Shown here: one piece after another, positions 8,364 to 16,702 of the stretch
Position numbering within the stretch: the stretch's first letter is position 1
Layout of the letters: each line of letters begins with the position of its first letter
Origin: Pukyongia sp.
GTDB lineage: Bacteria > Bacteroidota > Bacteroidia > Flavobacteriales > Flavobacteriaceae
Length of the DNA: 64,000 nt
Direction: 5' to 3'
Assembly: GCA_030148705.1 (NCBI GenBank)
Contig: JASBSY010000014.1
Location: 434,001 to 498,000, forward strand
The notes under the pieces: generated by a model
What the model was told of the DNA's origin: nothing
Seen by the model: only the letters and a program-made list of their open reading frames with translations
The model's database searches: none
Position numbers and translations under genes: made by a program

Positions 8364-9605
8364 ATGAAAGACTATTTAACGTTGGCTGAAACATCAGAAC
8401 TTATTGGCAAGTGTAAAGAAACATTGCGTAGATGGGATAACGAGGGCATTTTAAATGCTGTTCGAGAACCTGTTTCAAATTATCGGATGTACAGAAAATC
8501 TGATGTTCAAGCCTTATTGGGAAGTCTTTTTGATGATATAGTCGTGGATGAAGTTTCCAATTTTGTTGAGCCTGAAAAAGAGTATTCGGTGTTGGAACTA
8601 TTTGCCGGAGCCGGTGGTTTAGCAATCGGTTTGGAAAAAGCCGGATTGAAATGTGTCGCATTAAATGAAATTGACAAATGGGCCTGTGAAACATTGCGAA
8701 ATAACCGTCCGAATTGGAATGTACTAGAAGGAGATATTAGAAACTTTAACTTCACGGAATACAAAGGCAAAGTCGATGTAGTAACTGGTGGTTTTCCTTG
8801 TCAGGCGTTTAGTTATGCAGGTAAAAAATTGGGTTTAAATGATGCAAGGGGAACGCTTTTTTATGAGTTTGCAAGAGTGGTTAAAGAGGTTCAACCCGCT
8901 ATTTGTATAGGCGAGAATGTTCGTGGATTATTAAGTCACGAAAAAGGTAAAACACTTGAAGGGATGATTTCTATTTTAGATGAGATTGGTTATAAAGTTG
9001 TTCCTATCCAAGTGTTGAAAGCTATATACTACCGTGTTCCTCAAAAGAGAGAACGATTAATTTTAGTTGGCGTACGCAAGGACATTGATCTGGATTTTGA
9101 ATATCCAAAACCACACAATAAAATTTACAATCTTGAAGATGCCTTGAAAAAGGGTGAACTTTTTGATTGCGATGTTCCAGAATCCAAGGGAGCCCAATAT
9201 CCCGAATACAAAAAACAAGTTCTTGATATGGTACCACCAAAAGGTTATTGGAGGGATTTACCTATTGATGTTCAAAAAGAATATATGGGAGGCAGTTATT
9301 ATCTTGGTGGAGGAAAAACAGGAATGGCTCGTAGAATTGGTTGGGACGAACCGTCGCTAACATTGACTTGTAGTCCTGCTCAAAAGCAAACAGAACGTTG
9401 TCATCCGGATGAGACCCGACCCTTTACAGTACGGGAGTACGCTCGTATTCAAACCTTTCCCGATGAATGGAAGTTTGCTGGTTCTATGGCACAACAATAT
9501 AAACAAATTGGTAATGCTGTACCTGTTAATCTTGGACAAGAAGTTGGTTATTCAGTTGTTAAGATTTTGAATGAATACTATTCTGAAAAACAAAAAGACT
9601 ATTGA
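8364..9605 (+). CDS. DNA (cytosine-5) methyltransferase with N-terminal MerR-like helix-turn-helix
   Basis: 413 residues. Residues 1-52 (YLTLAETSELIGKCKETLRRW) form a MerR/excisionase-like winged helix. A complete C5 methyltransferase follows: motif I ELFAGAGGLAIGLEKAG, motif IV GGFPCQAFS with catalytic Cys146, motif VI ENVRG with Glu184, motif VIII VPQKRERLILVGVR, and motifs IX-X RPFTVREYARIQTFPDEW and QIGNAVP. It is the modification half of a type II system; the convergent restriction gene overlaps its 3' end by seven bases. The helix-turn-helix could let the enzyme regulate its own operon, as known for some C5 methyltransferases, but that is inference. AT-rich relative to flanking genes, suggesting acquisition by transfer. 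Confidence 0.95.
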   Translation: MKDYLTLAETSELIGKCKETLRRWDNEGILNAVREPVSNYRMYRKSDVQALLGSLFDDIVVDEVSNFVEPEKEYSVLELFAGAGGLAIGLEKAGLKCVALNEIDKWACETLRNNRPNWNVLEGDIRNFNFTEYKGKVDVVTGGFPCQAFSYAGKKLGLNDARGTLFYEFARVVKEVQPAICIGENVRGLLSHEKGKTLEGMISILDEIGYKVVPIQVLKAIYYRVPQKRERLILVGVRKDIDLDFEYPKPHNKIYNLEDALKKGELFDCDVPESKGAQYPEYKKQVLDMVPPKGYWRDLPIDVQKEYMGGSYYLGGGKTGMARRIGWDEPSLTLTCSPAQKQTERCHPDETRPFTVREYARIQTFPDEWKFAGSMAQQYKQIGNAVPVNLGQEVGYSVVKILNEYYSEKQKDY

Positions 9606-10306
9606 TATTTCTCAGCAATTTCTTTTGCCAGTTTTTGTATTGTGCTTTCTACAACTTTACTAGCATCGACTTCTAATGCAACTTCTCCAATTGCGTCTAT
9701 CAGCTCGAAATAAAAATCATCTTTACCAGTCAATCGATGCCAAAAATCCTGACCAATATATACTGGGTAGTTTTGACCAATTCGCCTATAATGTGAGCTT
9801 AACTCTTCTGGTTCACCGTAAACAACTCCAACAATCATATCATTAATACCAACATCTAAATTGTTTGTTCTCGCCAAACTCCGTACCCCATTAAAGTGAT
9901 TTACAATTGTTGTAACATCATCGTGATTGATTGTATTTGGACCAGCTTTTAATTGGCAATATTTTTTTCTTCCGTCAACTTCATCAATAAATTCGATATC
10001 AATCCCCTGCGTAGTTGAACCAAGCCCTTGAAAAAGAGTACTAATAAGACTTTGAATTTTCATTCCGAATGAGGTCGTAATAGATGAACCTAAAATCCTA
10101 GGTAAAACTAAAGCCCTTGCAATACTTACTGAATCATCATTACCAGTCAAAAAGTTAGCTAGGTATTTAAATAAGAATGGATTAACATTATACTCTGAAA
10201 GCTTACTTGCTCTTTCACAGGCACCTTTTATATGACTTTGGACAATTTCGTTTCTGAAAAATTGTTTAGCATTCTCTATTATCTGTTTCCTTTGTTCTTT
10301 ATCCAT
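9599..10306 (-). CDS. Type II restriction endonuclease, Eco47II/PmeII-like
   Basis: 235 residues. The motif GIDIEFIDEVDGRKKYCQLKAGP carries a PD-(D/E)xK-type site in the variant D103...Q118-L-K120. NTINHDDV, DMIVGVVYGEPEELSSHY and YPVYIGQDFWHRLTG match, from memory, the Eco47II/PmeII restriction family, whose members cut GGNCC-type sites. Together with the C5 methyltransferase it makes a complete type II system in convergent orientation, so the two are expressed from separate promoters. Recognition site is inferred only from family resemblance. Confidence 0.82.
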   Translation of the reverse strand: MDKEQRKQIIENAKQFFRNEIVQSHIKGACERASKLSEYNVNPFLFKYLANFLTGNDDSVSIARALVLPRILGSSITTSFGMKIQSLISTLFQGLGSTTQGIDIEFIDEVDGRKKYCQLKAGPNTINHDDVTTIVNHFNGVRSLARTNNLDVGINDMIVGVVYGEPEELSSHYRRIGQNYPVYIGQDFWHRLTGKDDFYFELIDAIGEVALEVDASKVVESTIQKLAKEIAEKYQ

Positions 10307-12914: not shown

Positions 12915-12945
12915 TTTGGATTATTAAAAAATGTTTTCATCTTTG
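12915..12945 (+). promoter_or_regulatory. Promoter of second short transcript
   Basis: TTTG (12915-12918), a 19-base spacer, and CATCTTTG (12938-12945) fit the Bacteroidota consensus with one change in the -7 box. The GCACCGCA just after is typical of flavobacterial start-site context. Transcript to the terminator at 13102 would be about 185 bases. Confidence 0.55.
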
Positions 12946-13002
12946 CACCGCAGTTGAATAAATGCAACGCATCAATAAAATAACAATTTAAAAACGAAGA
13001 CT

Positions 13003-13080
13003 ATGTGTTTATCGAATAGTAAACCACGATTTAAAGGAGATCAGTTTCTCCCATCGACACAGCTTCGCGATCATGAATAG
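13003..13080 (+). CDS. Possible 25-residue peptide or small RNA unit
   Basis: A 25-codon frame (MCLSNSKPRFKGDQFLPSTQ...) lies between a good promoter and a terminator, mirroring the unit at 12545-12730. Both peptides share an NS...QF pattern, too short to prove kinship. It may be a leader peptide or a small RNA acting on the TPR gene downstream. No family recognised. Confidence 0.33.
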   Translation: MCLSNSKPRFKGDQFLPSTQLRDHE

Positions 13081-13101
13081 CTAATAATACTTCTATGATA
13101 G

Positions 13102-13136
13102 ATCCGAAGCACACCTGACTGTTTCGGATTTTTTTA
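13102..13136 (+). terminator. Terminator of second short unit
   Basis: ATCCGAA and TTCGGAT pair perfectly around a 14-base loop, followed by seven T after the stem. It separates the short unit from the TPR gene 66 bases on. Confidence 0.82.
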
Positions 13137-13201
13137 TATCCAGCCGGATAGCCCGATCTCTGTTTCAGCAGGAAGAAAATTAACTTTTAACTTAAAACAG
13201 A

Positions 13202-13786
13202 ATGGAGGCAAATACGTCTAACATCTATTTATTTAAAGCGCTTGAAGCCTACCCTTACGAGTTGGCCAAAGCAATGGAGGCACTGAACTACGCCCTGTCT
13301 TACGACCCTGAGAATGTTCGCGCATTATGCCTTATGGCAAAGATTCAGGATGAGCAGTTGGGCGAGTTCGAACTGGCGAGATCATACTACGAAAAGGCGC
13401 TGGCCCTGAGGTTGGATCTACCTGCAATTTACCCGGACTTTATCCGGTTGCTGGTAAACAACGAGGAATTCGAGGCCGCACAGCGACTTATCGAATTCGC
13501 GAGAACCGTTAAGGGAATCGACAGTGCGGTGATCGAACTGGCTCAGGCAAAACTATTTGAGGCCACAGCAAGGTATGATGAAGCGCTTGATGCCCTTAAG
13601 GAAGCCAAACAGCTGGCCATGAACGGGGATTTCATCATGTATGTTGATGAGGTAATCGGACGGGTAAAGAAGAAGCGTGAATTTGCAAATAACAAAAAAC
13701 GCAAACTTCGTGAGACCCAGCCCGAACCCGTAAAGGAAAGTACCGGTGTAAAATGGTTTTCCGGCAGGCTTAATAACCTGTTGTAA
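13202..13786 (+). CDS. TPR protein upstream of the tRNA-like array
   Basis: 194 residues. Consecutive helix pairs fit tetratricopeptide repeats: AMEALNYALSYDPENVRALCLMA, EFELARSYYEKALALRLDLPAIY, EFEAAQRLIEFARTVKGID, and RYDEALDALKEAKQLAMNG. No signal peptide, so cytoplasmic; the tail is basic (KKKREFANNKKRKLRE), which would suit nucleic-acid contact. TPRs bind partner proteins. Its place between two short-RNA units and the tRNA-like array, with slipin beyond, suggests it belongs to the same locus, but this is guilt by position only. Confidence 0.85.
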   Translation: MEANTSNIYLFKALEAYPYELAKAMEALNYALSYDPENVRALCLMAKIQDEQLGEFELARSYYEKALALRLDLPAIYPDFIRLLVNNEEFEAAQRLIEFARTVKGIDSAVIELAQAKLFEATARYDEALDALKEAKQLAMNGDFIMYVDEVIGRVKKKREFANNKKRKLRETQPEPVKESTGVKWFSGRLNNLL

Positions 13787-13977: not shown

Positions 13978-14050
13978 AGTATCGTAGCTCAAAGGCTAGA
14001 GCACCCGGTTGTCTCCCGGGCGGGTACGGGTTCGAGTCCCGTCGATACTG
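13978..14050 (+). tRNA. tRNA-Asp(GTC)-like, first unit of the array
   Basis: 73 bases fold into a full cloverleaf: acceptor AGTATCG/CGATACT (7 bp), D-stem GCTC/GAGC with GG in the loop, anticodon stem CCCGG/CCCGG-complement with loop TTGTCTC (anticodon GTC, C38), T-stem ACGGG/CCCGT with loop TTCGAGT. The G discriminator fits Asp identity. CCA is not encoded. An A1-T72 pair is unusual for an Asp tRNA. The 3' acceptor can also fold into an alternative hairpin ACTGC-GAA-GCAGT (14047-14059). Confidence 0.8.
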
Positions 14051-14119
14051 CGAAGCAGTGAGCCGGGACGAGAAGTTTATCCCGCCTGTGGCGGGAAGCA
14101 TCGTCGATACTGCGATATA

Positions 14120-14190
14120 GGAAGGACAAGTGACGAGTTAAGTCATCGGCTTGCTTGGATGAGGTGTTGGTTTAATTCCGCTCCCTTCCG
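14120..14190 (+). pseudogene. Degenerate tRNA-like unit 2
   Basis: GGAAGG and CCTTCC give a 6-bp acceptor at 71-base spacing; TGAC/GTCA can form a D-stem. The T-arm (GTTGG, TTTAATT, CCGCT) is weak, with T for the invariant C56 and a mismatch. The anticodon arm does not pair normally (CATC/GATG around ten bases). I read it as a decayed tRNA; the anticodon is unassignable. Confidence 0.35.
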
Positions 14191-14230
14191 CTAAATATTA
14201 TGTAAGACAAGTGTTTGCAAGAGTACAAAC

Positions 14231-14303
14231 TGAGGCATAGCTTAATTGGTAGAGCACCGGACTTTTACTCCGGGTGATGCAGGTTCGGATCCTGCTGCCT
14301 CAA
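14231..14303 (+). tRNA. tRNA-Lys(TTT)-like
   Basis: 73 bases: acceptor TGAGGCA/TGCCTCA (7 bp), D-stem GCTT/GAGC with one G-T and loop AATTGGTA, anticodon stem CCGGA/TCCGG with loop CTTTTAC (anticodon TTT), T-stem GCAGG/CCTGC. The T-loop is TTCGGAT, so invariant A58 is G. Discriminator A fits Lys. T1-A72 instead of G1-C72 is atypical. Confidence 0.78.
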
Positions 14304-14307
14304 CAAT

Positions 14308-14365
14308 GCAGGAATGGCGAAATGGCTAACGCAGCCGATTTAGGATGGGGAGACCGGGAGTTCGA
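14308..14365 (+). pseudogene. 3'-truncated tRNA-Leu(TAG)-like unit
   Basis: The 5' part reads like a class II tRNA-Leu: GCAGGAA, TG, D-stem GCG/CGC with loop AAATGGCTAA, then an anticodon loop TTTAGGA (anticodon TAG) with a partly mismatched stem. The sequence reaches the GTTCGAA of the T-loop and then stops being tRNA: the 3' T-stem and acceptor are replaced by the hairpin AATGC-GAA-GCATT (14366-14378). Confidence 0.55.
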
Positions 14366-14387
14366 AATGCGAAGCATTGACGAACAC

Positions 14388-14413
14388 AAAAGTTTAAAAT
14401 AAAAGTTTAAAAT
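14388..14413 (+). repeat. 13-base direct tandem repeat
   Basis: AAAAGTTTAAAAT occurs twice back to back in the spacer after the truncated Leu unit. It is AT-rich in a GC-rich locus and could serve as a promoter UP-like or processing spacer; no role is evident. Confidence 0.6.
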
Positions 14414-14448
14414 AGTAGAGAGTGAGCAAATCTCCCTCTCTGTAACAG

Positions 14449-14522
14449 ACCCCTCTAATCCAACGGGCAGAGATGACAGATTTAGAATCTGTACAGTCCC
14501 GGTTCGAATCCGGGGAGGGGCA
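14449..14522 (+). tRNA. tRNA-like with TAG anticodon on a class I body
   Basis: 74 bases. Acceptor ACCCCTC/GAGGGGC pairs at six of seven positions (A1-C72 mismatch). Anticodon stem ACAGA/TCTGT with loop TTTAGAA gives anticodon TAG (Leu). T-stem CCCGG/CCGGG with loop TTCGAAT is perfect. The variable loop is short (class I), whereas bacterial tRNA-Leu has a long variable arm, and the D-stem is poor. This mix makes charging by LeuRS doubtful. Confidence 0.65.
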
Positions 14523-14526
14523 CAAA

Positions 14527-14598
14527 AGGGGTATGGTGTAAGGGAGAACATTTCCGGCTTCGAACTGGAAGATACGGGTTCGAATCCTGTTACCCCTG
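14527..14598 (+). tRNA. tRNA-Arg(TCG)-like
   Basis: 72 bases: acceptor AGGGGTA/TACCCCT (7 bp), D-stem GTGT/ACAT with GGG-containing loop, anticodon stem TCCGG/CTGGA (one G-T) with loop CTTCGAA (anticodon TCG), variable loop of four, T-stem ACGGG/CCTGT with loop TTCGAAT. Discriminator G. It starts five bases after the previous unit ends. Confidence 0.78.
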
Positions 14599-14602
14599 CC
14601 AC

Positions 14603-14674
14603 AAACCCGTAGTGTAATGGCGAGCATACGAGACTTTGAATCTCGTGGTACAGGTTCAAATCCTGTCGGGTTTT
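14603..14674 (+). tRNA. tRNA-Gln(TTG)-like
   Basis: 72 bases: acceptor AAACCCG/CGGGTTT (7 bp), D-stem GTGT/GCAT with loop AATGGCGA, anticodon stem CGAGA/TCTCG with loop CTTTGAA (anticodon TTG), T-stem ACAGG/CCTGT with loop TTCAAAT. The discriminator is T, where Gln tRNAs normally carry G, and the first pair is A-T. Four bases separate it from the Arg unit. Confidence 0.78.
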
Positions 14675-14680
14675 CATTTC

Positions 14681-14753
14681 GGAACAGTAGCATGGCAGGT
14701 CTATGCGTCCCGCTGAACACGGGAAGATACAGGTTCGATTCCTGTCTGTTTCA
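14681..14753 (+). tRNA. tRNA-Phe(GAA)-like
   Basis: 73 bases: acceptor GGAACAG/CTGTTTC (one G-T), D-stem GCAT/ATGC with GG in the loop, anticodon stem TCCCG/CGGGA with loop CTGAACA (anticodon GAA), T-stem ACAGG/CCTGT with loop TTCGATT. Discriminator A fits Phe. This is the only good unit of the array that begins with G1-C72. Confidence 0.78.
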
Positions 14754-14829
14754 CATCGGGCGAGTCCGGTTAGGTGTTTCTGAATGGCACCAATGTATAA
14801 GCAATTGCAGTGATGTATGATCTGCTTAT

Positions 14830-14904
14830 GTACAACCCGACCCGAAGGTAGGCTACAACCAAATGTAGACGCTATAGTCGCCGGTTCGATTCCGGTCTGT
14901 TTTT
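14830..14904 (+). pseudogene. Degenerate tRNA-like unit 9, T-arm intact
   Basis: A perfect T-arm (GCCGG, TTCGATT, CCGGT at 14880-14896) is followed by CTGTTTT, echoing the 3' end of the Phe unit. Upstream, CTACA/TGTAG encloses ACCAAA, a six-base loop that resembles a shortened tRNA-Trp loop (CCA). No 5' acceptor strand is found. Further upstream, ATAAGCA/TGCTTAT (about 14798-14828) forms a separate 7-bp hairpin. Confidence 0.4.
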
Positions 14905-14910
14905 CGGGGA

Positions 14911-14983
14911 AATCCCGTGATTACAGTAGCTCAGAGGTTAGAGCAATAGCTGAGATGCGCAGGTTCGATTCCTGCCGGGGTTA
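14911..14983 (+). pseudogene. Scrambled tRNA-like unit 10
   Basis: Exactly 73 bases with good ends: acceptor AATCCCG/CGGGGTT (one T-G), T-stem GCAGG/CCTGC with loop TTCGATT, discriminator A. Inside, a D-arm-like hairpin GCTC/GAGC with GG in its loop is shifted about nine bases 3', and only 14 bases remain for the anticodon arm and variable loop. No anticodon can be read. Confidence 0.5.
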
Positions 14984-14999
14984 CCGGGATATTTCCGGG

Positions 15000-15047
15000 C
15001 ACTCCGTAGCTCAGATGGTAGAGCACTACGCTTTTAACGTAGGGAAT
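15000..15047 (+). pseudogene. 3'-truncated tRNA-Lys(TTT)-like unit
   Basis: The 5' two thirds are normal: CACTCCG, TA, D-stem GCTC/GAGC with loop AGATGGTA, anticodon stem CTACG/CGTAG with loop CTTTTAA (anticodon TTT). After the variable loop the T-arm is absent; instead ATGGTTT-TAT-AAACCAT (about 15046-15062) makes a perfect 7-bp hairpin. No 3' acceptor strand follows. Confidence 0.55.
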
Positions 15048-15099
15048 GGTTTTATAAACCATCATCTCAAGAAGGGTAACTTGTTAAATGCCCACCAGG

Positions 15100-15182
15100 G
15101 CCGTTATGCCAAAAAACTGACAAAAAACAACCGGGGGCGTATCGGTTTGGTTTTTTCGGAAACCGGACAAGTCCAGGAATGA
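15100..15182 (+). pseudogene. Possible decayed copy of the slipin 5' end
   Basis: One frame reads YAKKLTKNNRGRIGLVFSET and soon stops. NNRGRIGLVF lines up with INAGQVGLVF near the start of the slipin gene 490 bases downstream. The match is short and may be chance. The surrounding 15063-15367 has GC-rich hairpins such as CGGTTT/AAACCG and no other recognisable gene. Confidence 0.2.
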
Positions 15183-15367
15183 CCTTGAAATACAATTGCC
15201 GGTTTTCGAAAGCGAATGCTTAACCCGGACGAAACTCAGGACAATGGAACCTTGTGTTTATTCTCTTGAGCTTTCCAGGGGATAACCGTTTTGCCGCAGA
15301 TTGCAGGCCTTGTATTTCCGGCAGGAAAGGATGATATGCCTCATGTTGTTTTAAACTGAAATACTGC

Positions 15368-15460
15368 GTTAGGGATAGAAGCAGGCTACCCCGTCCCGGC
15401 ACGAGAGTGACGGGCGTGTAGCGCGGATAGCCCGACCACGCCCTTGGCGTGGGAACGCCC
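15368..15460. ncRNA. Structured intergenic element of Flavobacteria (Flavo-1-like)
   Basis: GTTAGGGATAGAAGC and GCGGATAGCCCGACC flank a long stem: GCTAC/GTAGC (15385-15389 with 15418-15422) stacked on CCCGTC/GACGGG (15390-15395 with 15409-15414), then a second hairpin CACGCC/GGCGTG. I recall the GGGATAGAAGC...GCGGATAGCCCG frame as a repeated intergenic structure in Flavobacteria, possibly the Flavo-1 motif. The name is from memory and the functional strand is undecided. It lies 130 bases before the slipin start. Confidence 0.6.
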
Positions 15461-15589
15461 AAAATAAATTCCTGAACAGAAGTGAAGGAAAGAAAGTAAA
15501 CTTCAACGACGGCCGGCACCGGTAGGTTGTTTTGGAGCGAAGCAGGCCTTAAGGGCCATTATTTAATGTTGAATTTAAAATAGAATGAA

Positions 15590-16702
15590 ATGAAAAGAGT
15601 ACGAATTAACGCAGGACAGGTAGGCCTTGTTTTTCGCAAGGGCGATTACAGGCGGGTACTCACTAAAGGTGTTTACTGGCTTCGACTGAACGACAAGGTG
15701 CTGAGATACGATCTGGCATATAGGTTTGTTCAACTACCAAAATCCCTGGAATTACTGTTGCTGGACACCGAACTTGCTGCTATGCTGCAAGTGGTTGAAG
15801 TGAATGATGGCGAACTGGTGATCGTTACGAAGAACGGACGATTCAGCGAAGTGCTGAGCACGGGACGCTATGTGTTCTGGAAAGGCCTGGTGGAATTCGA
15901 TTTTACCAGGGTAGATACCAGTAAGATCTACATCACTGAACAACTGGATAAGGCCTGGTTCAATAAAACCGAACTGAACGCTTATATACGGTTGTTCGAG
16001 GTGGCTGCTTTCGAAAAAGCGGTACTTATCGTGGACGATGTCTACGAGAAAACGCTTGAAAGCGGTACGTACAGGTTCTGGCGAAATGATACGTCCATTA
16101 AGGTTGTAAAGGCCGATATGAGGCAGTTGCAGCTCGAAATTGCCGGACAGGATCTGTTAACCCGAGACAAGGCGGCGATAAGAATTAACTTCGACCTGCT
16201 GTACCGCGTGGTCGATATTGAAAAAGCGTTGCTGGGGAGCAAATCTTACGAAAAGCAATTGTACGTTGCAATGCAGCTTGCGCTGCGGGCCTATGTTGGA
16301 GCCTACAGCCTGGATGAGGTTTTGGAAAACAAAGCGCAGATCGCTCAGGCTGTCTTTGAAGACACAAAGGCAGCAGCGGCCAAACTTGGTGTCACGGTCC
16401 TTGACTGTGGTATTCGCGATGTCATCCTAACCGGTGAGATGAAAGACATCATGAACCAGGTGCTGGTGGCACAAAAGAAGGCCCAGGCGAATGTAATTAC
16501 AAGGCGTGAAGAAACGGCTTCTACCAGGAGCCTGATGAACACGGCCAAATTGATGGAGGAAAACGCAATGCTCTACAAATTGAAAGAAATGGAATTTGTA
16601 GGACAGATCGCCGACAAGATCGGGGAGATTACGATTTCCGGAAACGGTCAACTGCTCGAGCAGTTAAAGGATATCTTTACTGTTGGTAAGCAGGCCGATT
16701 AA
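15590..16702 (+). CDS. Slipin (SPFH/band 7) family protein
   Basis: 370 residues. The N-terminal 150 hold three related repeats: QVGLVFRKGDYRRVLTKGVY, ELVIVTKNGRFSEVLSTGRY and KAVLIVDDVYEKTLESGTY. An SPFH domain follows (LLTRDKAAIRINFDLLYRVVD, KQLYVAMQLALRAYVGAYSLDEVL, KLGVTVLDCGIRDVILTGEM), then a helical tail with AQKKAQANVITRREETASTR. No N-terminal membrane hairpin is seen, unlike stomatins. Slipins of this long type are known in gene neighbourhoods of RtcB RNA ligase; here the gene follows a tRNA-like array. It probably scaffolds membrane or RNP assemblies. A terminator follows. Confidence 0.9.
   Translation: MKRVRINAGQVGLVFRKGDYRRVLTKGVYWLRLNDKVLRYDLAYRFVQLPKSLELLLLDTELAAMLQVVEVNDGELVIVTKNGRFSEVLSTGRYVFWKGLVEFDFTRVDTSKIYITEQLDKAWFNKTELNAYIRLFEVAAFEKAVLIVDDVYEKTLESGTYRFWRNDTSIKVVKADMRQLQLEIAGQDLLTRDKAAIRINFDLLYRVVDIEKALLGSKSYEKQLYVAMQLALRAYVGAYSLDEVLENKAQIAQAVFEDTKAAAAKLGVTVLDCGIRDVILTGEMKDIMNQVLVAQKKAQANVITRREETASTRSLMNTAKLMEENAMLYKLKEMEFVGQIADKIGEITISGNGQLLEQLKDIFTVGKQAD

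What the first reader, a model, noticed from the sequence alone, without database searches (positions are those of the whole stretch)
13978..15047. Array of eleven tRNA and tRNA-like units next to a slipin gene
Eleven cloverleaf-like units lie head to tail on the plus strand over about 1.07 kb, six with full cloverleaves (anticodons GTC, TTT, TAG, TCG, TTG, GAA) and five truncated or scrambled. Most good units begin with A-T or T-A pairs rather than G-C, one has T where Gln needs G73, one has G58, and the TAG unit combines a Leu anticodon with a class I body. These are unlike a normal operon of housekeeping tRNAs. Slipins are known neighbours of RtcB RNA-repair genes; I infer decoys for anticodon nucleases, spare tRNAs for translation under attack, or damage sensors.
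Basis: partly seen in the sequence, partly recalled or inferred. Interest (0 to 1): 0.92.

Follow-up and report, generated by a model that had tools for sequence, protein, structure and literature searches.

The report
Reserve tRNA array with vault-like slipin
A conserved island in one large group of bacteria joins spare, oddly built tRNA genes, an RNA made of inside-out tRNA pieces and a protein of a ring-forming family, apparently so that the cell can keep making protein when its RNA is damaged; this genome carries a reduced copy.

Summary
ARAGORN finds six tRNAs, Infernal eight matches, all plus strand. They split into eight array slots (six intact, two damaged) and a separate ncRNA before the slipin gene. 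The ncRNA contains a circularly permuted tRNA cloverleaf (96.8% of cells paired, 77.1% when shuffled; 17 of 20 pairs changed on both sides). In 83 slipin loci all 650 upstream ARAGORN tRNAs are plus strand; isotype order is conserved (0.93 against 0.61). An RNA-only search of 395 genomes found the ncRNA in 14, all 14 with slipin downstream. Upstream lie a TPR gene (53 loci), RtcB (16) and PrfH (12). Three Proteobacterial loci have RtcR, slipin and RtcB or RlaP. Array tRNAs keep housekeeping discriminator bases (522 of 545, Gln apart) but change base 37 in seven isotypes. Best reading: a reserve-tRNA and RNA-repair island like the Anabaena L-array regulon, reduced here (no RtcB). Expression and function are untested. 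New variant of a known kind.

The parts
13202..13786 (+). TPR-repeat protein, 194 aa, of a family usually upstream of the array
   Evidence: weak Pfam TPR matches, below most cut-offs; same BLAST cluster upstream in 53 of 83 loci, nearest ORF in 49, all plus strand
13978..14051 (+). array tRNA Asp-GTC (A1-T72, G73, T37)
   Evidence: (62.4 bits); 97% identical to Asp units of L096 and L063
14119..14192 (+). damaged array unit with acceptor-like ends GGAAGG/CCTTCC (by eye); assignment to Ser is weak
   Evidence: sequence; only a 23-nt match to a Ser-GCT unit, E 0.11, and its minimum-energy fold is not a cloverleaf
14231..14304 (+). array tRNA Lys-TTT (T1-A72, A73)
   Evidence: (69.7 bits)
14308..14445 (+). 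array Leu-TAG unit interrupted inside the T loop; 3' limit approximate
   Evidence: 86% identical over 59 nt to the L087 Leu-TAG unit
14449..14523 (+). array tRNA in the Leu-TAA slot, with anticodon TAG, class I body
   Evidence: 48.7 bits; the nine matches printed are all Leu-TAA units
14527..14601 (+). array tRNA Arg-TCG
   Evidence: (58.2 bits)
14603..14675 (+). array tRNA Gln-TTG (T73)
   Evidence: (67.4 bits)
14681..14754 (+). array tRNA Phe-GAA (GGAACAG acceptor strand, as in 32 of 51 array Phe units)
   Evidence: (56.0 bits)
14762..14874 (+). 5' domain of the conserved ncRNA (branched stems, conserved hairpin GTGTTTC..GCAC)
   Evidence: alignment A4 and its fold; own-genome hit of model R1, 85.2 bits (this sequence is in the model)
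14871..14950 (+). permuted tRNA-like cloverleaf X1: anticodon-stem 3' strand, T arm, acceptor hairpin, D arm, anticodon-stem 5' strand
   Evidence: covariation; own sequence folds into it; coordinates
14959..15062 (+). second permuted unit X2 (T arm, acceptor hairpin, D arm), then a Lys-like anticodon arm and one more hairpin
   Evidence: YrlA-like match, covariation, fold z -3.91; coordinates
15063..15589 (+). rest of the leader before slipin; shorter conserved blocks in relatives, mostly not recognisable in the window
15590..16702 (+). slipin (SPFH/Band 7), 370 aa, three N-terminal beta modules
   Evidence: PF01145 E 3.8e-30; AlphaFold2 models

Best explanation
The locus is a reduced copy of a conserved RNA-damage island of Bacteroidota: (RtcB-PrfH-)TPR, reserve tRNA array, permuted-tRNA ncRNA, slipin. 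Shown: the parts, their order, their conservation and the folding of the RNA. Inferred: the island is normally silent and switched on by translational stress or RNA damage; the array supplies a second set of chargeable tRNAs whose altered anticodon loops and acceptor stems escape the nucleases or modification-dependent recognition that hit housekeeping tRNAs; the ncRNA, a Y-RNA-like tRNA mimic, is the partner RNA of slipin, which assembles into a ring or cage that holds damaged tRNA, ligase or rescue factors. In this genome the ligase is missing and two array slots are damaged, so the copy may be only partly functional.
For: Array on the slipin strand: 650 plus, 0 minus, 77 of 83 loci. Order concordance 0.931, null mean 0.613. 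Acceptor stems: 4090 of 4179 standard pairs, with many double-sided changes (ARAGORN favours paired stems). Discriminator base as housekeeping in 522 of 545 units of 16 isotypes, Gln the exception with 11 of 52. Base 37: A for housekeeping G in 178 of 191 units of five isotypes; T in Asp 59 of 60 and Glu 48 of 48. Housekeeping Lys, Leu, Arg, Gln and Phe tRNAs of the same anticodons exist in this genome. Permuted cloverleaf. RNA-first search: 14 of 395 genomes, all 14 with slipin. RtcB in 17 of 20 slipin genomes, 155 of 375 others, Fisher p 1.2e-4, relatedness not corrected. RtcB in 18 and PrfH in 12 of 83 loci beside the array. RtcR and slipin with RtcB or RlaP in three Proteobacterial loci. 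Palindrome ACGCA..TGCGY upstream in 37 of 83 loci, downstream in 0 of 83. Parallel: in Anabaena a silent 26-tRNA operon, rtcB and a slipin gene rise together under translational stress (PMC10272220: abstract, passages, section 9).
Against: No expression data. This genome lacks RtcB and the palindrome (chance level), and two array slots are damaged. Where the palindrome and the array can both be placed, it tends to lie between array and ncRNA (for example L059: array ends near -1310, palindrome -1088, ncRNA motif -724), so ncRNA-slipin may have its own promoter and array and slipin need not be co-induced. Pyrimidine 37 in Asp and Glu and the lost variable arm of Leu would be expected to harm decoding. 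In L057, L058 and L060, the nearest relatives with full flanks apart from L059, ARAGORN finds only one or two array tRNAs. RtcB is among the three nearest ORFs per side in only 18 of 83 loci (some flanks are cut). RtcB2-PrfH in E. coli protects from colicin E3, not from the tRNA toxins E5 and D (PMC9223846, passages). Housekeeping Asp was not found in G000, but its syntenic site lies at a contig end, so this proves nothing.
Confidence: 0.55

Rival explanations
1. Decoys: array units and permuted tRNA mimics are bait or competitive inhibitors that soak up anticodon nucleases or other tRNA-attacking toxins.
For: Anticodons and, in nearly all units, U33 are kept. Frequent isotypes (Asp, Gln, Phe, Leu, Tyr, Glu, Arg) include known targets (colicin E5: Tyr, His, Asn, Asp; colicin D: Arg; PMC9223846 passage). 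A competitive-inhibitor role was suggested for the YrlA tRNA-like domain (PMC7790460 passage).
Against: A decoy needs no conserved discriminator base or compensated acceptor stem; both are kept. Base 37 next to the anticodon is changed in several isotypes, which would make a poorer mimic.
Confidence: 0.2
2. Regulatory or sensing RNA: the permuted modules are a leader that senses damaged or uncharged tRNA and controls slipin; the tRNA array is a by-product of duplication.
For: The ncRNA motif lies upstream of slipin in 82 of 83 loci (L061 is cut short, the L040 match is weak) and slipin follows in 14 of 14 RNA-first hits. Several hundred nt separate the last T arm from slipin.
Against: The array is more elaborate than a sensor needs, with fixed order and kept identity elements. 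No alternative fold was sought; the window's minimum-energy folds of both units are the tRNA-like ones.
Confidence: 0.15
3. Decaying tRNA genes or a phage relic without function, next to slipin by chance.
For: Two of eight slots are damaged in the window. The six congeners searched have no close slipin: five have only remote paralogues of 22-24% identity, one no match.
Against: Conserved order, strand and compensated stems in many genera. No slipin match in 50,697 phage records, none confirmed in viral contigs. Strong covariation of the permuted fold.
Confidence: 0.06

Closest known systems
L-array / trn operon of Anabaena PCC 7120 and its TrcR regulon (Santamaria-Gomez 2021, recalled, not held; PMC10272220 abstract, passages and section 9; PMC9938897 passage)
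   Same: Long array of supernumerary tRNAs; rtcB and a slipin gene in the same stress response
   Different: In Anabaena array, rtcB and slipin are separate genes under a shared repressor; here array, ncRNA and slipin are one locus with fixed isotype order, unusual base 37 and a permuted-tRNA ncRNA (whether Anabaena has such an RNA was not tested)
Bacterial Y RNA YrlA, Rfam RF02553 (rsr-yrlBA-rtcBA operon)
   Same: Circularly permuted tRNA mimic: T arm, acceptor hairpin, D arm (Rfam alignment; bacterial Y RNA in PMC11472068 passages); linked to RtcB operons (PMC7790460 passages)
   Different: Scores 24-42 bits, gathering score 69; neighbour is slipin; tandem units; own 5' domain
SPFH/Band-7 with a 'novel tRNA-like molecule' in RNA-repair systems (Burroughs and Aravind 2016, recalled, not held)
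   Same: Slipin-type gene with a tRNA-like RNA in an RNA-repair setting; the Proteobacterial loci L217 and L218 may belong to it
   Different: The published RNA could not be compared; whether the multi-isotype array and the tandem permutation are described there is unknown to me
RtcB2-PrfH module (PMC9223846, passages)
   Same: RtcB-PrfH pair before TPR and array in some relatives
   Different: RtcB absent from this genome; the passages seen mention no slipin

Membership tests
L-array of supernumerary tRNAs | Array tRNAs in addition to housekeeping copies | tested here: met
   Lys-TTT, Leu-TAG, Arg-TCG, Gln-TTG and Phe-GAA found elsewhere in G000; Asp inconclusive, contig end
L-array of supernumerary tRNAs | Silent normally, induced by translational stress | not testable with these tools
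   No expression data; feature known from PMC10272220 and recalled work
L-array of supernumerary tRNAs | tRNAs functional in aminoacylation and translation | not testable with these tools
   Discriminator bases kept, base 37 altered
YrlA (Y RNA-like, RF02553) | Permuted tRNA fold, T arm - acceptor hairpin - D arm | tested here: met
YrlA (Y RNA-like, RF02553) | Reaches the Rfam gathering score of 69 bits | tested here: not met
   32.0 bits in the window; 33.2 in L040, 31.5 and 24.4 in L041; best 42.1 in L191
YrlA (Y RNA-like, RF02553) | Neighbouring Ro/Rsr (TROVE) gene | tested here: not met
   None of ten window ORFs scanned around the array has a TROVE match in Pfam; the whole genome was not searched for it
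Rtc RNA-repair operon | RtcB ligase present | tested here: not met
   0 matches in G000; present in 17 of 20 slipin genomes of the phylum sample
Slipin / SPFH family | SPFH (Band 7) domain | tested here: met
   PF01145 E 3.8e-30; stomatin SPFH Z 17.6, rmsd 1.3, 109 aligned
Major vault protein | Vault-type tandem repeats before an SPFH-like shoulder | tested here: inconclusive
   Full model aligns to MVP over residues 3-315, Z 12.6, rmsd 6.6, 216 aligned; N-terminal modules alone match MVP only at Z 2.2-2.4 and SPFH beta subdomains at Z up to 4.7
Prophage tRNA cluster | Relatives in phage genomes | tested here: not met
   No confirmed slipin in IMG/VR, no match in 50,697 phage records; the array itself was not searched there

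The most novel reading that the evidence does not exclude
A bacterial analogue of the vault: a soluble slipin cage whose RNA partner is a string of inside-out tRNAs, paired with a broad second tRNA set that synthetases can charge but that avoids the modification or cleavage of the anticodon loop. Cells would switch to this parallel tRNA set while RtcB and PrfH repair the damaged translation machinery.
Probability: 0.25. Interest if true: 0.93.

Novelty: new variant of a known kind. Interest (0 to 1): 0.76.

Why it matters
It ties four things usually studied apart (silent tRNA arrays, tRNA-mimicking Y-type RNAs, SPFH proteins and RtcB repair) into one locus that can be deleted, expressed and imaged. 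The array poses a sharp question: why would these bacteria keep the anticodon and discriminator base of a dozen or more extra tRNAs while replacing base 37, with a pyrimidine in Asp and Glu? An answer would say whether bacteria keep a second, damage-resistant decoding set. In the Rfam 15 searches made, no family other than tRNA itself reaches its gathering score over the ncRNA, so it also offers a natural series of permuted tRNA mimics.

Tried and rejected
Phage relic: no confirmed slipin relative in viral contigs and none in phage records. Plasmid matches are distant: 61 records, all under 60% identity; four of the 61 were opened.

Array Asp as the only tRNA-Asp of this genome, which would have shown use in translation: housekeeping Asp was found in five of seven genus members (not in G000 and G003), and the syntenic gene in G000 ends 85 bp from the end of contig C8, so an assembly gap explains it.

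Operator in the window: a relaxed palindrome search gives four matches on both strands at two places, chance level (4.63 expected), none near the array.

Vault relation of the N-terminal modules: modelled alone (pLDDT 91), Foldseek finds nothing at E <= 0.001 and MVP rows reach only Z 2.2-2.4; so the vault likeness is suggestive only. Stomatin, prohibitin and HflK/C remain the solid matches.

Proteobacterial tRNA-like units: Rfam finds tRNA matches only in Photobacterium L217 (54.1 and 46.4 bits); none in the region before slipin in Citrobacter L216 or Burkholderia L218. The L216 unit is by eye only; L218 rests on its fold (z -2.31). The first L217 unit folds little better than shuffles (z -0.95).

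Conserved gene downstream of slipin: the largest cluster with mostly downstream members spans 12 of 83 loci; L041 has a T4 Rnl1-type RNA ligase there.

Literature: searches returned no paper; two key papers are not held. I do not claim that the association is unpublished.

Limits of the sample: the 80 loci are the best of 360 confirmed relatives, so they favour near relatives (65-75% identity, mostly Flavobacteriaceae). L061, L098 and L111 have short upstream sequence and stay in the n of 83. Housekeeping comparison rests on two genomes (G000, G040). One of 650 units could not be parsed, and isotypes with fewer than 13 units (52 units) are left out of the 522 of 545 count, as is Gln (52 units). 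Phe (G37 in 40 of 51) and Leu-TAA (G37 in 22 of 38) are changed only in part. X1 was scored in 81 of 82 ncRNAs (L135 dropped); A3 used 44 of those 81 and A4 45 of 82. In one search alignment columns with many gaps were dropped before folding. Model R1 contains the window sequence. The list of RtcB matches is cut, so 'five within 1.5 kb' is a lower bound.
Full report
WHAT IS THERE. The window (from a genome of 24 contigs, 99.6% complete) holds, on the plus strand, a TPR gene (13202-13786), an array of tRNA units (13978-14754), a structured RNA region (14762 to about 15062) with a leader up to 15589, and a slipin gene (15590-16702). ARAGORN calls six tRNAs; Infernal gives those six, two borderline tRNA matches and a sub-threshold YrlA match. 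Comparison with units of relatives shows that the interrupted unit at 14308 is the 5' part of a Leu-TAG unit, and that the 14449 unit is the Leu-TAA slot whose anticodon now reads TAG. The unit at 14119-14192 could not be assigned with confidence.

IT IS CONSERVED. Of 39 other relatives searched, two have a close slipin (54% and 46% identity); the six congeners have remote paralogues or nothing, so the island is sporadic. A scan of genome contigs gave 360 relatives, of which the best 80 were kept. With the window, L040 and L041 that makes 83 loci. Upstream of slipin (up to 6 kb held) ARAGORN finds 650 tRNAs, all on the slipin strand; downstream it finds none on that strand and four on the other. 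Of 71 loci with more than 3 kb upstream, 69 have one or more, 51 five or more and 37 ten or more, up to 18. Neighbouring units are 5 nt apart at the median (434 of 568 gaps are 15 nt or less). Pairwise isotype order agrees with the majority in 93.1% of cases; the mean after shuffling is 61.3%, the highest of 200 shuffles 63.3%. Read by eye, a common order is Ser, Asn, Cys, Tyr, Trp, Asp, Pro, Glu, Lys, Leu-TAG, Leu-TAA, Arg, Gln, His, Phe. Ala is absent, Gly occurs in one locus and Thr in two.

THE TRNAS ARE UNUSUAL BUT NOT JUNK. Compared with housekeeping tRNAs of this genome and of the complete chromosome G040, the array units have their own acceptor stems, shared between loci (for example Asp AGTACCG or AGTATCG in 46 of 60, Phe GGAACAG in 32 of 51, Cys GACAAGG in 31 of 34). 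In 17 isotypes 4090 of 4179 acceptor pairs are standard, with many double-sided changes (ARAGORN's own selection inflates the first number). The discriminator base equals the housekeeping one in 522 of 545 units of 16 isotypes; Gln is the exception (T73 in 41 of 52). Leu units have lost the long variable arm while Ser and Tyr keep it. Base 37 is altered: where housekeeping tRNAs have G36-G37 (Gln, Leu-TAG, Arg-ACG, His, Pro; 11 of 11 genes), 178 of 191 array units have A37; Asp has T37 in 59 of 60 and Glu in 48 of 48. Tyr, Lys, Cys, Ser, Trp, Asn and Arg-TCT keep the housekeeping A37. A pyrimidine at 37 is rare in functional tRNAs, and G36-G37 is the site of m1G37 methylation (both general knowledge), so the array appears to avoid that modification. 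The anticodon and, in nearly all units, U33 are kept. This pattern fits tRNAs that must still be charged but must not be handled like the housekeeping set.

THE NCRNA. Between array and slipin lies an RNA whose 5' motif is found in 82 of 83 loci with up to three mismatches (L061 is truncated, L040 weak). Its 5' domain has 33 predicted pairs, 18 with double-sided changes (45 sequences). Next to it, tRNA-like elements occur in permuted order: 3' anticodon-stem strand, T arm, acceptor helix closed by a loop, D arm, 5' anticodon-stem strand. The permuted cloverleaf was tested on 44 sequences: 96.8% of cells paired (77.1% after shuffling, 0 of 500 as high), 17 of 20 pairs with double-sided changes, covariation score 0.574 against 0.184; sliding the partners drops pairing to 52% or less. 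A cruder test on 81 loci agrees (acceptor 479 of 567 pairs, highest shuffle 323). The window's own sequence folds into exactly this cloverleaf. A second unit covaries in T arm, acceptor and D arm but lacks a comparable closing stem (236 of 405, highest shuffle 221); in the window and several loci printed there a Lys-like anticodon arm follows. The topology is that of the YrlA model; a bacterial Y RNA structure superposes on tRNA with a circular permutation (PMC11472068, passages). Scores stay far below Rfam's cut-off.

LINKAGE TO SLIPIN AND RNA REPAIR. A covariance model of the 5' domain found matches in 14 of 395 genomes of the phylum; all 14, this genome included, encode the slipin downstream on the same strand. 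A slipin profile at E <= 1e-40 hit 20 of the same 395, including all 14. The other six lack the model match, but all six have T-arm motifs upstream of slipin and five of them YrlA-like matches. RtcB is present in 17 of these 20 genomes and in 155 of the other 375 (Fisher p 1.2e-4, relatedness not corrected); in at least five of the 20 it begins within 1.5 kb after slipin (coordinates). In the 83 loci, RtcB is among the three nearest ORFs in 18 (16 upstream, 2 downstream) and PrfH in 12, all confirmed by profile and all on the slipin strand; the TPR family is upstream in 53. A minus-strand WYL-type gene lies upstream in three loci (one, L130, confirmed by Pfam). A palindrome ACGCA..TGCGY lies upstream in 37 of 83 loci and downstream in 0 of 83; L201 of the phylum sample also has it after slipin, before RtcB. 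It often lies between array and ncRNA, so the two may be transcribed separately. Of 61 plasmid records with slipin matches four were opened: in Photobacterium and Burkholderia slipin stands behind divergent RtcR and before RtcB, in Citrobacter behind rtcR and before RlaP, and in a record labelled Subdoligranulum RtcB follows slipin. The Photobacterium and Burkholderia upstream units fold as cloverleaves in normal order, Rfam supporting only the former. P. aeruginosa also has an SPFH gene inside its rtc locus (PMC13086221, passage).

THE SLIPIN. The AlphaFold2 model (pLDDT 77.6, last 68 residues under 50) shows three tandem beta modules, the SPFH domain and helices. Solid structural matches are stomatin, prohibitin and HflK/C, which form large oligomers. 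In the 50 rows shown, only major vault protein aligns from residues 2-4 to 307-315 (9bw5: Z 12.6, rmsd 6.6), but the modules alone match it weakly. A cage that holds RNA is therefore an inference.

READING. The closest known system is the Anabaena L-array: a silent operon of 26 tRNAs, induced together with rtcB and a slipin gene by antibiotics that hit translation (PMC10272220, abstract, passages and section 9). The island described here has these ingredients in one locus in many relatives, adds PrfH, a TPR protein and a permuted-tRNA RNA, and carries tRNAs that have drifted in a patterned way. The best explanation is an inducible reserve tRNA set with a tRNA-mimic ribonucleoprotein for times of RNA damage. 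The copy in the window has no RtcB in the genome, no PrfH among its neighbours, and two broken slots, so it is reduced. Function, expression and charging are untested, and two papers that may already describe parts of this could not be read.

Noticed in passing
window 12920-13150: Short ORF followed by a terminator-like hairpin before the TPR gene, behind a Bacteroidota-type promoter-like sequence (all by eye); possible leader peptide or small RNA.
   Followed up: no
window 8364-10306: C5 cytosine methylase (plus strand) and an EcoO109I-type restriction endonuclease (minus strand) side by side: a type II restriction-modification pair a few kb from the array.
   Followed up: no
G000:C6:73428-73500 (L033): A Ser-GCT tRNA with class I body and CGCGG start, by eye much like an initiator tRNA with a changed anticodon loop.
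   Followed up: no
G000:C2:175066-175152 (L038): A second, poor tRNA-Ser-GGA (35.3 bits) beside a normal one elsewhere.
   Followed up: no
L068, L073, L077, L078, L088, L093, L094, L119 arrays: Eight units read as Tyr-ATA, all with T37 and with varied discriminator, mostly just before Phe; perhaps degenerate or non-decoding units.
   Followed up: no
L133, L136: Array block Tyr-Asp-Pro-Glu-Leu-Gln repeated in tandem in L133 and partly in L136 (locus cut), both Tenacibaculum.
   Followed up: no
L191, L204, L205: Simplest versions: divergent WYL-like regulator (by eye), operator-like palindrome (matched in L191 and L205), one T-arm motif, slipin; perhaps the ancestral form of the island.
   Followed up: partly
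L218:4397-4473: Burkholderia tRNA-like RNA before slipin folds as a cloverleaf whose anticodon arm ends in a GAAA tetraloop, so it could not decode.
   Followed up: partly
G040:C1:489527 and 1621726 (L170, L171): Two further weak tRNA matches (29.5 and 28.9 bits) outside the array in the complete chromosome.
   Followed up: no
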